The position numbers and the translations under genes are program-made. The notes beneath the pieces were generated by a model. The model was not told the DNA's origin. It ran no database searches and worked only from the letters and a program-made list of their open reading frames with translations. From Bacteroidales bacterium (GTDB lineage Bacteria; Bacteroidota; Bacteroidia; Bacteroidales; UBA932), in the NCBI GenBank assembly GCA_017438975.1, contig JAFRUH010000029.1, positions 1 through 64,000 of the forward strand: a stretch of 64,000 nucleotides of DNA. The letters run 5' to 3'. Below, one piece after another: positions 45,137 to 48,989 of this stretch (the stretch's first letter is position 1; every line of letters starts with the position of its first letter).

Positions 45137-45567
45137 TGCGCCGGGCGTTCCCTTTCCTTCTGATTCTGCTCTCGGTGCTTTCTTGCCGGGAGCCGATGTC
45201 TGTCGAGACCTATATCCGGTCGGAGACAGGCCCCTTTGCGTTTACCGTGGACATGAGTGATACGACGGCTGTCTATGACCTCACGTTCTACACGCGTCTG
45301 GACGGGCCGCACCGTTACCTGGAATCAGATTTCGAGACGCCGCTGACGGTTTACTGGCGTTCTCCTTCCGACAGTCTGTACGAGGAAACGGTCTATCTTC
45401 CGCTGGAAGGGGAGGACGAGAATTTTTATTCGCGCCAGCTGAAAGTGCCGTATCGGGAGGAGGTTTCTCCCCGCGAGGCCGGAGTCTGGACGCTGACGGT
45501 CACCCTGCCGTCCCCGGTCCCGGGATTCCGGGGGCTGGGGCTGGTCACAACGAAGAGGAGGATTTGA
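45136..45567 (+). CDS. GldH-like lipoprotein
   Basis: This 143-residue lipoprotein has the lipobox LLSVLSC (Cys17), a beta-rich middle (TYIRSETGPFAFTVDMSDTT, then ALYDLTFY-like strands) and a C-terminal PVPGFRGLGLVT that is typical of the GldH family. GldH is needed for gliding in Flavobacterium. Non-gliding Bacteroidales keep it next to PSP1, where its job is unclear (possibly envelope secretion). It starts on the last base of the PSP1 stop. Confidence 0.75.
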   Translation: MRRAFPFLLILLSVLSCREPMSVETYIRSETGPFAFTVDMSDTTAVYDLTFYTRLDGPHRYLESDFETPLTVYWRSPSDSLYEETVYLPLEGEDENFYSRQLKVPYREEVSPREAGVWTLTVTLPSPVPGFRGLGLVTTKRRI

Positions 45568-45569
45568 GA

Positions 45570-46583
45570 ATGGGCCATGGAAAACTGAGGAAATTCGCTG
45601 AGAATGAGACGTTTCGCTGCCTGCTGCAACCGGCGGCGGAAGAGGTGATGTCACATGGCCCGGGCGGGGAACTCCTGCTGAAAGACCACCCGGTAAAAGG
45701 CCGTTGGAACAGGGACATGTTCGCAGCGGACCAGCCCATCGTGCTGGAACTCGGCTGCGGGAAAGGGGAGTACACGATCGCCCTTGCGGAGCGCCATCCG
45801 GAGATGAATTTCATCGGCGTCGACATCAAGGGCGCCCGGCTGTGGAAAGGCGCGAAATACGCTACGGAGAAATCGCTTCCGAACGTCGCCTTCCTCCGGA
45901 CCCGGATCGAGTTCATTCCGGCATTTTTCGGTCCCGGCGAGGTATCCGAAATCTGGCTGACCTTTTCCGATCCGCAGCTCAAGAGTCCGAACAGCCGTCT
46001 CACCTCTCCGCTCTTCCTGGACCGTTACCGTTCCTTTCTCGCCCCCGGCGGCATCGTGCACTTGAAAACCGATTCCCGTTTCCTGCACGAATATACGAAG
46101 GCGGTCATCGCGGCGAACGCCCTTCCCGTCCTCGCCTCCGGCACCGACATCTACCATGATGGACTCACGGTCGCCTGCGCTTCCGGGGAGATCCTTCTTC
46201 CGGGGGGAAGGGCTTCTTACCCCGGACCCATGGCCACCCTCGGCCATGTAAGAGGGAGTGGCCCGGAGATCCGGGACCGACTGGAGGGAACTTGTTCCCG
46301 GAAAGAAGGTCGGGGAACTCCGGGAGGGGTCGCGCAGCGACGGTCCGGGGAAGATCCCTTTCCCCCGGAAGAATCGCCCCTGAAGGATTTGGCAGCCGTT
46401 TTCGAGGTCCAGACCTTCTACGAAAGCATGTTCCTCGAGATGGGCCTCCCCATCACCTACCTCGCCTTCACCCTCGACCGCCCTACCGGCCCCTTCGCGG
46501 CCCCGGAGGACTTCGATGAAAAGTTCTGGCGCGAAGCCGAAGGCCCCCGCCGCTCCTTCTCCCACCAACCCGCAAAAAAATAG
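45570..46583 (+). CDS. trmB: tRNA (guanine-N7-)-methyltransferase with in-frame repeat insert
   Basis: This 337-residue protein is a TrmB methyltransferase that makes m7G46 in tRNA: VLELGCGKGEYTIALAERHP (SAM loop), NFIGVDIKGARLWKG, IWLTFSDPQLKSPNSRLTS and VHLKTDSRFLHEYT. Residues about 211-273 are an extra Gly/Arg/Pro-rich stretch (46200-46390) before the C-terminal helix AAVFEVQTFYES, which is normally reached directly. The insert keeps frame and contains a CATGGCC/GGCCATG hairpin (46229-46248). Parts resemble the insert in miaA and the end of the element near 30.9 kb. Start chosen at the ATG 45570, right after the gldH stop. Confidence 0.88.
   Translation: MGHGKLRKFAENETFRCLLQPAAEEVMSHGPGGELLLKDHPVKGRWNRDMFAADQPIVLELGCGKGEYTIALAERHPEMNFIGVDIKGARLWKGAKYATEKSLPNVAFLRTRIEFIPAFFGPGEVSEIWLTFSDPQLKSPNSRLTSPLFLDRYRSFLAPGGIVHLKTDSRFLHEYTKAVIAANALPVLASGTDIYHDGLTVACASGEILLPGGRASYPGPMATLGHVRGSGPEIRDRLEGTCSRKEGRGTPGGVAQRRSGEDPFPPEESPLKDLAAVFEVQTFYESMFLEMGLPITYLAFTLDRPTGPFAAPEDFDEKFWREAEGPRRSFSHQPAKK
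46224..46333 (+). repeat. Coding-sequence repeat insert in trmB
   Basis: The segment has two recognisable parts. 46224-46276 encodes GPMATLGHVRGSGPEIRD and matches a stretch of miaA (48123-48186, GPTQPRLGERRGEEPESGD) in DNA spacing and frame. About 46289-46333 contains AACTTGTTCCCGGA and TCCGGGAGGGGTCGCGC, resembling 30902-30950 (AACTTCTTCCCGGA and TCCGGGGAGGTGTCGGCGC). Boundaries are approximate. Confidence 0.5.
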
Positions 46584-46590
46584 TGTGATT

Positions 46591-46620
46591 TACCTCTGGT
46601 TAAAACTCACCAGAGGCGCA
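46591..46620 (+). repeat. REP-type palindrome, copy 1
   Basis: CCTCTGGT (46593-46600) pairs with ACCAGAGG (46609-46616) around the loop TAAAACTC, preceded by TGTGA. It lies between trmB and the transposase and is almost identical to copy 2. Confidence 0.8.
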
Positions 46621-46672
46621 TAAGGTTTTTCCTTCTGAATCAGCAGATTAGCCTCCACCGGCGTTTGGGAGA

Positions 46673-47602
46673 TTATTTCCGCCTTAGGACAATCTGCAGG
46701 TACTTCGCGATTTGGTCCGGCATGGCGTTGGTCTTTTCGGAGAGATACTTGAACAGGGTCCATTTTTCTTCATCGGGGAGGGAGAGGATCTCGTGGATGT
46801 CTCCGAAATGGCCGGTGTCCATAAGAATCCGGGTCATTTCTTCGTATACGGCATCGGACCGGCCGACGAACCGCTCCTTCAAGTCGTATTCCGAACCAGT
46901 GGTTGAATGGACGGCCGTCAGCATATTCTCATAGGAGCCAAAATACTGAATCACAGTTTTATGGTCCAGGATGGAGTAAGTAGAAATGATGAAATCTGTC
47001 AACTGTTCTTTCTCCTCGAAGCGGAGGGGCGTGAACAATTGTCGAAGTATATCATACCTGAGATACCATCCGTTCTTATGGTATTCTTTTACCCGTTTCA
47101 GCGCACGTCGAAGCGGGGCGGAGGCCTTTTTCAAATTGATAGGAGTGGAATACGGGTGATCGCTATCCGAATAGGCCAGGAAATTCCACCGGTATTCTTC
47201 GGCCATCCGGCACAGATGGCGTTCAACCGGGTTATTGTCCAGATAGATGAATGTTGAGCGGACCTTTTTTTCCCCCCTTTTCGGCACGCTTCCGAAAGGA
47301 GATTCGAAAAATGGACCTTTCTTGCCCCGCTGTTGATTGTTTTCCCTTGAAAACAGAGAGACGAGTTCTTGGATGAACCGAAATAGCGTCACTCTGCTCG
47401 GTGCAATGGCGCCCATGTGGTAATGGTCCGGCATCAGGCTGAGTTTCAGAACGATGACGTCAAACCGCGGCGCGACGACGCTGAACAAGGTATAGAACAA
47501 TAGGTAATCATAGAGATTGTAGAAAATCAAAAACCCATTACGGGTCCGCTGATAGCAATGATTCAAAATGCCGGGAAGGTATTTTCGGTTCTGGCCTTTC
47601 AT
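46673..47602 (-). CDS. REP-associated (IS200-like Y1) transposase
   Basis: This 309-residue protein begins MKGQNRKYLPGILNHCYQRT, the typical start of Bacteroidetes Y1 transposase-like proteins. The HUH motif is LSLMPDHYHMGA (His60, His62). Tyr120 in STFIYLDNNPVERHL is a candidate catalytic Tyr, followed by the family's EEYRWNF. The C-terminal half is a long helical extension. I prefer the ATG at 47602; an upstream ATG at 47638 adds 12 residues. The gene is bracketed by two near-identical REP palindromes, so it is a RAYT that probably acts on them. No insertion-sequence ends or target duplications are visible. Confidence 0.8.
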   Translation of the reverse strand: MKGQNRKYLPGILNHCYQRTRNGFLIFYNLYDYLLFYTLFSVVAPRFDVIVLKLSLMPDHYHMGAIAPSRVTLFRFIQELVSLFSRENNQQRGKKGPFFESPFGSVPKRGEKKVRSTFIYLDNNPVERHLCRMAEEYRWNFLAYSDSDHPYSTPINLKKASAPLRRALKRVKEYHKNGWYLRYDILRQLFTPLRFEEKEQLTDFIISTYSILDHKTVIQYFGSYENMLTAVHSTTGSEYDLKERFVGRSDAVYEEMTRILMDTGHFGDIHEILSLPDEEKWTLFKYLSEKTNAMPDQIAKYLQIVLRRK

Positions 47603-47697
47603 AGTATAGTTGTTTAGTCCCCCAAAGGTCGTGATCATTTATGGAAATAACAAATCGGGTGGAGCCTTAGCGTCTATGTGTCAGCGTATTATGTGAA

Positions 47698-47727
47698 GTA
47701 CCTCTGGTTAAAACTCACCAGAGGTAC
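47698..47727 (+). repeat. REP-type palindrome, copy 2
   Basis: GTACCTCTGGT (47698-47708) pairs perfectly with ACCAGAGGTAC (47717-47727), loop TAAAACTC, preceded by ATGTGAA. It has the same orientation as copy 1 and lies between the transposase and miaA. Confidence 0.85.
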
Positions 47728-47792
47728 ATGCGGTAAGCGGCTGATTATGAGGGAAATGGGATCCACCGAGGAAGCAGCGACGGGGAAAGGGC

Positions 47793-47824
47793 CTTGTGGG
47801 GGAAGGAAAAAATTCCTAATTTTG
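47793..47824 (+). promoter_or_regulatory. Promoter of miaA
   Basis: CTTG (47793-47796), a 20-base spacer and TAATTTTG (47817-47824). The -7 box ends 4 bases before the ATG at 47829, so the transcript may be leaderless. Confidence 0.5.
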
Positions 47825-47828
47825 AAGT

Positions 47829-48989
47829 ATGGGAAAGAAAGAGAAGAATCCTGAGGCGGCGGCTCCGGCCCTGGAGGCGATCCGGGCGGAGGATCTGCTC
47901 TCCGCCTGGTCCGGGCTTTCCCGGAAAGGCACCGACGGCACGGCCGGGGATACCGTTCCGGCAGAGTCCGGGGAGACTGGAAGCGAGCCCGGGGAGGGTC
48001 CATGGGACCTTCTCTGTGTGCTGGGACCGACGGCGTCGGGGAAGACGCGGTATGCGGTCGCCCTCGCCCGGAAGTTGGACGCCCTGCTCGCGGAGGCCGG
48101 GAAACCGATCCTGGCAAGGACGGGTCCGACCCAACCAAGGCTCGGTGAGAGAAGGGGAGAGGAACCGGAATCCGGAGATCCGGTGCCTGGCAAGGCGCCC
48201 CGGGTCGAGATCATTTCCGCAGACTCCCGGCAGGTCTACCGGGGAATGGACATCGGAACCGGGAAGGACCTCGATGAATATGGGGAGGTCCCGTACCATC
48301 TGATCGATATCGTCGAAGCGGGGGAGAAATATGATCTTTTCCGGTATCAGGCGGATTTTGAGAAAGTCTACCGGGAGATCCGGGAAAGAGGGAACATCCC
48401 GCTCCTCTGCGGGGGGACGGGTCTTTATATCCAGGCGGTTACGGAGGCGTTCCATCTTCCCGACGTCCCGGCCGACCCTGAACTTCGGGCGGAACTGGAA
48501 GAAGCTGATATCGAAGAGCTTCGCGAGGCGTATGCCGAGCGGACCGAGCCGGATCCGGAGGTGATGGTCAGTAAAAAACGGCTGATCCGCGCCCTGGAAA
48601 TCCTCCTTTCGGGGAAAGAGATCCGCCGGAGTGACTATGCCCCCAAGCGCACTTTTTTCATCGGGCTTTCCCTCCCCAAGGAGGAGTTGCACGGAAGGAT
48701 CGCCGAACGCCTGAGGACGCGCCTCGACAACGGGATGGTCGAGGAGGTCCGGGGACTTCTCGACCGGGGACTCGACACCGGAGACCTCATCTACTATGGA
48801 CTTGAGTATAAATTCATTACATATTATCTGACAGGGTTGATGGACCGGGAGACCATGCTCTCCCAGCTGGAGACTGCCATCCGCCATTTCGCAAAACGGC
48901 AGATGACCTTTTTCCGGTCCATGGAATCGAAAGGGACGGTCATTCACTGGACCGCCCCGTCCCTCGGACCCGAAGGGATGAATCAGTGA
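47829..48989 (+). CDS. miaA: tRNA dimethylallyltransferase with two extra segments
   Basis: This 386-residue protein is MiaA, which adds a dimethylallyl group to A37 of tRNAs: LCVLGPTASGKTRYAVALAR (P-loop about 66-73), VEIISADSRQVYRGMDIGTG, PLLCGGTGLYIQAV and KRLIRALEILLSGKEI. Typical enzymes are near 300 residues. This one has about 58 extra residues before the P-loop (rich in Gly, Glu and Pro) and about 40 extra between KLDALL and VEIISADSRQ. The second insert resembles the one in trmB. No alternative ATG, GTG or TTG lies between the first ATG and the P-loop, so the N-terminal extension should be translated. Confidence 0.9.
   Translation: MGKKEKNPEAAAPALEAIRAEDLLSAWSGLSRKGTDGTAGDTVPAESGETGSEPGEGPWDLLCVLGPTASGKTRYAVALARKLDALLAEAGKPILARTGPTQPRLGERRGEEPESGDPVPGKAPRVEIISADSRQVYRGMDIGTGKDLDEYGEVPYHLIDIVEAGEKYDLFRYQADFEKVYREIRERGNIPLLCGGTGLYIQAVTEAFHLPDVPADPELRAELEEADIEELREAYAERTEPDPEVMVSKKRLIRALEILLSGKEIRRSDYAPKRTFFIGLSLPKEELHGRIAERLRTRLDNGMVEEVRGLLDRGLDTGDLIYYGLEYKFITYYLTGLMDRETMLSQLETAIRHFAKRQMTFFRSMESKGTVIHWTAPSLGPEGMNQ
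48086..48205 (+). repeat. Coding-sequence repeat insert in miaA
   Basis: This is the roughly 40-codon stretch between the P-loop helix and the next conserved block. Within it 48123-48186 matches 46224-46276 of trmB: GACCCA, then CTCGG, then AGAG, then CCGGAGATCCGG (the miaA copy adds a few bases before the last piece). Limits are approximate. Confidence 0.5.

What the first reader, a model, noticed from the sequence alone, without database searches (positions are those of the whole stretch)
46224..48186. A repeat that has entered two neighbouring tRNA-modification genes in frame
trmB has about 60 and miaA about 40 extra codons at non-conserved sites. The two inserts share word order in DNA (GACCCA, CTCGG, AGAG, CCGGAGATCCGG) and read in the same frame to give similar peptides (GPMATLGHVRGSGPEIRD and GPTQPRLGERRGEEPESGD). 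Another part of the trmB insert resembles the end of the intergenic element at 30.9 kb. In-frame palindromic inserts are known in Rickettsia (RPE), but I know of none in Bacteroidota. The transposase with its REPs lies between the two genes.
Basis: partly seen in the sequence, partly recalled or inferred. Interest (0 to 1): 0.75.

Follow-up and report, generated by a model that had tools for sequence, protein, structure and literature searches.

The report
Folding repeat inside bacterial protein genes
A short repeated DNA element that folds on itself sits dozens of times in this gut bacterium's genome, sometimes inside working genes without breaking their reading frame, and its two flanking arms change sequence together while still matching each other.

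Summary
The trmB half of the finding holds and is larger than stated; the miaA half does not. Window 46203-46366 (outer arms to about 46180-46385), in frame in trmB, is one of 31-32 copies in its genome of a dispersed palindromic repeat. It occurs in 31 of 37 same-genus genomes (rumen Bacteroidales, probably Cryptobacteroides) and 0 of 24 from other families. A long copy-specific stem encloses a conserved three-hairpin core whose loop-linker pseudoknot covaries. Copies also lie in frame in rsmH, in a THUMP-like methyltransferase ORF and between hisD and hisC. Nineteen of 80 other trmB loci carry it at the same site, all in the opposite orientation, 18 demonstrably in frame. At shared positions the arms change on both sides together (32 double, 9 single changes in 4 copies; a fifth copy 0 and 4), and the core can be inverted: the two signatures of replication template switching. 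The miaA insert has no other genomic copy, folds weakly and has its own direct repeats. A new variant of the Rickettsia-palindromic-element kind; its mover and the core's role are unknown.

The parts
45564..46583 (+). trmB (tRNA guanine-N7 methyltransferase) with the element inside; only the part before the insert matches PF02390
   Evidence: ORF; PF02390 E 1.3e-25 at residues 38-167 of the 321 searched
46203..46366 (+). copy of the dispersed structured palindromic element, in frame in trmB
   Evidence: covariance model R1, 80.5 bits, E 9.4e-18, whole model matched; genome-wide copies
46180..46228 (+). 5' arm of the outer stem (P1), copy-specific sequence
   Evidence: predicted fold; arms compared across copies
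46230..46247 (+). P2 hairpin ATGGCC-ACCCTC-GGCCAT; loop bases 46237-46241 (CCCTC) form the pseudoknot
   Evidence: invariant loop and P2 inner stem in A1; pseudoknot covariation over held loci
46252..46256 (+). GAGGG, pseudoknot partner of the P2 loop
   Evidence: 95 of 97 motif matches in held loci pair fully, with three pair types at one position
46262..46324 (+). P3 hairpin, in this copy extended to about 63 bases; contains the 12-mer shared with miaA
   Evidence: fold; P3 differs in length and sequence between copies
46329..46341 (+). P4 hairpin GTCGC-GCA-GCGAC
   Evidence: fold; covarying pairs in A1
46342..46385 (+). 3' arm of the outer stem; its outer part reads EESPLK where empty L132 reads DDARLR
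   Evidence: fold; alignment with L132

Best explanation
The trmB insert is one copy of a genus-wide, non-autonomous, folding repeat of the Rickettsia-palindromic-element type. Shown: a conserved core (three hairpins plus a loop-linker pseudoknot) enclosed by a roughly 26-bp stem whose sequence differs from copy to copy; many copies per genome, mostly between genes and, where flank orientation was scored, not between divergent genes; some copies inside genes, in either orientation and in at least two frames, with the gene left open. Inferred: the copies spread by some trans-acting transposition activity. Once in place, DNA polymerase template switching between the arms copies changes from one arm to the other (arm homogenisation) and flips the core (spacer inversion), so positions last while arm sequence and orientation turn over. 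The GC-rich core is open in most frames, so inserts at tolerant surface loops such as the one before the TrmB T-x-Y-E motif (motif recalled) are translated and survive. The core itself is kept by recognition of its folded single-stranded form (RNA or ssDNA) by an unknown partner.
For: 31 copies by pattern with 0 in the reversed control, 32 by model. Structure counted on 28 of 31 copies: 94.5% of cells paired, 23 of 26 outer-stem pairs changed on both sides, 0 of 500 shuffles as high, slid controls 45-54%. Pseudoknot: CCCTC/GAGGG 90, CCCCC/GGGGG 4, CCCGC/GCGGG 1, one mismatch 2. Genus only: 31 of 37 against 0 of 24. In-frame copies in trmB, rsmH (PF01795 spans the insert, E 5e-91), a THUMP-like ORF and between hisD and hisC. 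trmB site: 19 of 80 named loci, 18 of 19 read through to QT[FY]YE, in two phases where the phase could be read. G000 against G086: 32 double standard-pair changes against 9 single in 4 copies. Both-side against one-side changes in close species: 6:0, 10:1, 3:2, 6:0, the last partly one base inserted in both arms. Core inverted within near-identical arms (G085 against G062) and at a shared position (G000 against G086).
Against: G.T mismatches exceed A.C in the pooled ungapped arms (72:43, two-sided p 0.009) and in the model-fitted alignment (59:22), which leans towards RNA-level selection; only G000 shows none (14:18). Shared copy C23:36061 shows 0 double and 4 single changes. Some shared copies keep arms 26/26 identical while flanks differ by about 8-12% (L217/L218, L236/L237), so arms are not simply free. 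No autonomous partner, target-site duplication or recent insertion was shown; of 7 window-genome copies checked in G086, 5 are shared, 1 probably shared, and only the trmB copy is absent, so present-day mobility is unproven.
Confidence: 0.7

Rival explanations
1. The element is primarily a functional RNA (bidirectional terminator, 3'-end protector or regulator). Its long stem is kept by compensatory RNA evolution; gene-internal copies are accidents.
For: Covarying pseudoknot and stems with invariant loops; positions conserved between G000 and G086; of 31 copies, 15 sit between convergent and 16 between co-directional flanks (4 of those intragenic), 0 between divergent ones; pooled G.T excess over A.C.
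Against: Copies stand in both orientations relative to the same gene, which swaps G.U for A.C in the mRNA; double changes far outnumber single ones; a one-base insertion is matched in both arms (L214/L216); copies lie inside coding frames; flank orientation rests on a simple codon score, with the best score below zero on one flank of 4 copies.
Confidence: 0.2
2. Each insertion is the core alone: it captures about 25 nt of target by fold-back synthesis, so the stem is an inverted duplication of host DNA made at insertion.
For: Arm sequences differ between copies; in window trmB the outer 3' arm resembles the empty site's codons (EESPLK against DDARLR); in L137 one arm is present without the core.
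Against: Shared copies change arm sequence in place after insertion; L151, more distant from both, shares the filled state with L139, so L137 is more simply a deletion; arms share a loose purine-rich pattern across copies.
Confidence: 0.07
3. The insert is an ordinary, slowly evolving linker of TrmB.
For: Length at this site varies widely in the genus.
Against: 31 copies of the same core elsewhere in the genome, mostly outside genes; the same element in both orientations and two phases at this site.
Confidence: 0.01

Closest known systems
Rickettsia palindromic elements (RPE)
   Same: About 100-150 bp, palindromic, dispersed, in non-coding places and in frame inside unrelated genes without breaking them (passages of PMC10969869).
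   Different: Found here in Bacteroidota; conserved pseudoknotted core with free arms; read in both orientations and at least two phases rather than as one conserved peptide; arms co-evolve and the core inverts. Sequence relation to RPEs not tested.
[quoted passage not shown]
   Same: Short, non-autonomous, dispersed, with inverted ends.
   Different: The outer arms are not a shared terminal sequence but differ from copy to copy; no target-site duplication or parent transposon was established.
REP / REPIN elements of Y1 (RAYT) transposases
   Same: Palindromic, mostly extragenic; a Y1-like gene lies next to trmB in the window.
   Different: That gene's flanking hairpin is another sequence (9 places); the element is several times longer than a REP.
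Short inverted repeats evolving by template switching (yeast genes, PMC8604942; coding palindromes of Nematomorpha mitochondria, PMC6649704)
   Same: Arm homogenisation and spacer inversion inside coding DNA (passages of PMC8604942; abstract of PMC6649704).
   Different: There the repeats are not copies of one dispersed family; here the spacer is a conserved folded core of about 60-110 bases, where the yeast table showed spacers of a few bases.

Membership tests
Rickettsia palindromic elements | dispersed palindromic repeat of about 150 bp or less | tested here: met
Rickettsia palindromic elements | in-frame insertion in unrelated protein genes | tested here: met
Rickettsia palindromic elements | each element encodes one conserved peptide | tested here: not met
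   both orientations and two phases at the trmB site alone
Rickettsia palindromic elements | sequence homology to RPE families | not tested
   no RPE sequence was fetched
MITE | shared terminal inverted repeats | tested here: not met
   only the inner GAAACC/GGTTTC end of the stem is shared; outer arms differ
MITE | target-site duplication | tested here: inconclusive
   no clear duplication in trmB against L132; GAAAA repeats in L139 against L137 fit a deletion as well
REP / REPIN of the window's Y1 gene | same hairpin as flanks the transposase gene | tested here: not met
   CCTCTGGTTAAAACTCACCAGAGG flanks the gene (46593-46616, 47701-47724); the element core does not
Rfam families | match at gathering score | tested here: not met
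   9 of the loci with copies searched at E up to 5: 6 matches, none at gathering score; sub-threshold mir-4716 (35.3 of 76 bits) and PhotoRC-I (20.2 of 45) overlap one copy, L011
Inverted repeats under template switching | coordinated arm changes and spacer inversion | tested here: met
   counter-results

The most novel reading that the evidence does not exclude
The core is a new class of folded nucleic acid, a pseudoknotted three-hairpin ssDNA or RNA that is the recognition form for a dedicated mobility or processing partner. The enclosing stem is a renewable, sequence-free handle, rewritten and flipped by template switching, so the element can live in either orientation in coding and non-coding DNA and act as a standing source of new protein segments.
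Probability: 0.3. Interest if true: 0.85.

Novelty: new variant of a known kind. Interest (0 to 1): 0.7.

Why it matters
In-frame palindromic inserts are discussed mainly for Rickettsia; a second, unrelated lineage lets one ask whether such repeats really feed protein evolution. Here dozens of species carry filled, empty, flipped and partly deleted versions of the same sites in conserved genes such as trmB and rsmH. That makes the question testable, and the arms offer a natural record of template switching over species-level time. Five literature searches (listings only, open-licence PMC library) listed no report, by title or abstract start, of such elements in Bacteroidota; that is not proof of absence.

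Tried and rejected
Rejected: one repeat shared by trmB and miaA. Rejected: membership of the 30.9-kb element. Considered and set aside: insertion by fold-back copying of the target (rival 2). Considered: arms kept by RNA selection; the mismatch test was mixed. Considered: mobility by the neighbouring Y1 gene; only a weak co-occurrence in 23 genomes, confounded by relatedness and completeness. No relative in phages or plasmids (E up to 0.01), and no exact match to one core pattern in viral contigs.

Rows dropped: alignment A1 holds 28 of 31 copies (L045, L048 and L031, the window copy, left out for long P3). The 32nd model hit in G000 (C23:59673) was not studied. In one search six copies could not be registered, and 83 of 107 passed the filter of at least 24 of 26 Watson-Crick or transition pairs. 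In one search the left flank of C20:284969 was not found. In one search the register of C20:292297 was reset by hand, and the fifth shared copy, C23:36061, was left out because its ungapped arms pair only 16-17 of 26 (0 double, 4 single). Several G handles and named loci are the same genomes (for example L103/L149, L108/L150, judged from contig lengths), so the two sets are not independent.

A structure prediction of TrmB (A3, ticket) was still unfinished at the last poll; nothing is claimed from it. Five of 30 P1 comparisons aside, most of the close-species counts were read from the printed strings, whose output was cut in the middle.
Full report
Observation. The window's trmB has about 60 extra codons that the closest relative at hand lacks (L132; 82% nt over the longest aligned block). 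A DNA search of the own genome with this segment gave 57 matching pieces, many of them the two halves of one element. A core pattern matched 31 places with up to 3 mismatches and 0 places when read backwards; a covariance model built later gave 32. The second miaA segment gave no other copy (next best E 0.099).

Anatomy. Each copy is a long outer stem closed by GAAACC/GGTTTC around a core: hairpin P2 with loop ACCCTC, the linker RTAAGAGGGAGGGGCCC, hairpin P3 of free length, GGGAGGGG and hairpin P4. On 28 of 31 copies, 94.5% of cells pair; 23 of 26 outer-stem pairs show changes on both sides; no shuffle of 500 reaches the observed values; structures slid by 1-3 columns give 45-54%. The P2 loop pairs with the linker: over all held loci 90 motif matches read CCCTC/GAGGG, 4 CCCCC/GGGGG, 1 CCCGC/GCGGG, and 2 have one mismatch. 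So the pseudoknot covaries. Nine loci were scanned against Rfam and gave no match at gathering score; two sub-threshold matches overlap one copy.

Distribution. With the model, 31 of 37 genomes of the genus and 0 of 24 of other families in the order have matches at E up to 0.01 (strict filters lose weak ones). The genus is probably Cryptobacteroides: one of the 80 named trmB loci is titled Candidatus Cryptobacteroides equifaecalis and the rest are uncultured Bacteroidales or Bacteroidia, mostly from ruminants (inference). Phage and plasmid records gave no match at E up to 0.01 and viral contigs no exact pattern match.

Coding copies. In the window's genome 4 of 31 copies lie in open genes: trmB; rsmH, where PF01795 spans the insert (E 5e-91); an ORF with PG_1098 and THUMP-like domains downstream of the insert; and one ORF in which the copy lies between histidinol dehydrogenase and an aminotransferase domain. 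Six or more other copies have a frame open through them without any Pfam match. In a second species three copies on one 16-kb stretch lie inside genes, read by eye as an aminotransferase, an M20-type peptidase and an unidentified gene (no family search was run). At the trmB site, 19 of 80 named loci have a model hit, all on the strand opposite to trmB; 18 of 19 stay in frame to the QT[FY]YE motif, L206 not shown, and two phases occur among the 13 whose phase could be read. The window and two other genomes (G017, G015) have the other orientation, judged by peptide in 30 loci.

Non-coding copies. Scored by codon usage, flanks of the 31 copies are convergent in 15, co-directional in 16 (4 intragenic) and divergent in 0. 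If a quarter of gene pairs were divergent (assumed), 0 of 27 would have a chance of about 4e-4. One flank of 4 copies scored below zero, so these are uncertain.

Evolution in place. Between the window's genome and G086 (the genome of L132), 5 of 7 positions examined are shared, 1 probably is, and the trmB copy is absent. In 4 shared copies, 32 of 104 stem pairs changed from one standard pair to another on both sides and 9 on one side; the fifth shows 0 and 4. Among close species the counts are 6:0 (L147/L151), 10:1 (L170/L174), 3:2 (L144/L147) and 6:0 (L214/L216, partly a base inserted in both arms). Against this, other shared copies have unchanged arms: L217/L218 and L236/L237 are 26/26 on both arms with flanks 88-92% identical. 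P3 can be replaced whole by another hairpin (L214/L216, L227/L232). The core is inverted within nearly the same arms in G085 against G062, inverted and truncated in G005 against G061, and inverted with different arms in G086 against the window's genome at C20:294106.

Mechanism. Template switching is reported to homogenise inverted-repeat arms and invert spacers, also in coding DNA (passages of PMC8604942). The observed double changes, matched indel and inversions fit that. RNA selection is not excluded. G.T exceeds A.C among mismatches in the pooled ungapped set (72:43, p 0.009) and in the fitted alignment (59:22), though not in the window's genome (14:18). Conserved loops and a covarying pseudoknot mean that some folded single strand matters. 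How copies spread is unknown; Y1 gene number and copy number go together weakly in 23 genus genomes.

miaA. Two extra segments of about 81 and 90 bp are absent from L132; the second is bounded by CCTGGCAAGG at 48110 and 48186. It is a separate, single-copy insert. Its resemblance to the trmB insert is a 12-mer and words of 4-6 bases.

Verdict. The trmB insert is a member of a genus-wide folding repeat that works like a Rickettsia palindromic element. It does not meet the one-conserved-peptide feature and was not tested for homology, so it is filed as a new variant of that kind and not as a member.

Noticed in passing
window 47910-47990 and 48095-48195: miaA carries two extra segments absent from L132; the second is bounded by a 10-bp direct repeat CCTGGCAAGG and has no other copy in the genome.
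   Followed up: partly
window 46593-46616 and 47701-47724: The Y1-like transposase gene (46673-47638, -) is flanked by two identical hairpins CCTCTGGTTAAAACTCACCAGAGG; related ones occur at 7 more places in the genome.
   Followed up: partly
L139, L151, L144, L147, L141 at about 2380-2580: A copy sits at the start of a lipoprotein-like gene, just after the stop of the upstream gene; read by eye, in L139 the arm supplies an ATG start and in L151 a TTG.
   Followed up: partly
L144, L155, L163, L109 at the trmB site; L273 in another gene: A different hairpin repeat (GTCATTYCGAGCGAAGC...GARATCTC-like) also sits in frame at sites where other species have the element.
   Followed up: no
L070 393-2858 (-): hisD and hisC are one open frame with a copy of the element as linker (residues 432-473).
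   Followed up: partly
L103 (G061 trmB): Two element copies or remnants in tandem in one trmB, with the reading frame open.
   Followed up: no
L045, L048, L141 and G086 at the position of C20:292297: P3 in several copies carries an extra hairpin with similar letters (..ATCTCTGATTCTTGGGG..), possibly an inserted sub-element.
   Followed up: no
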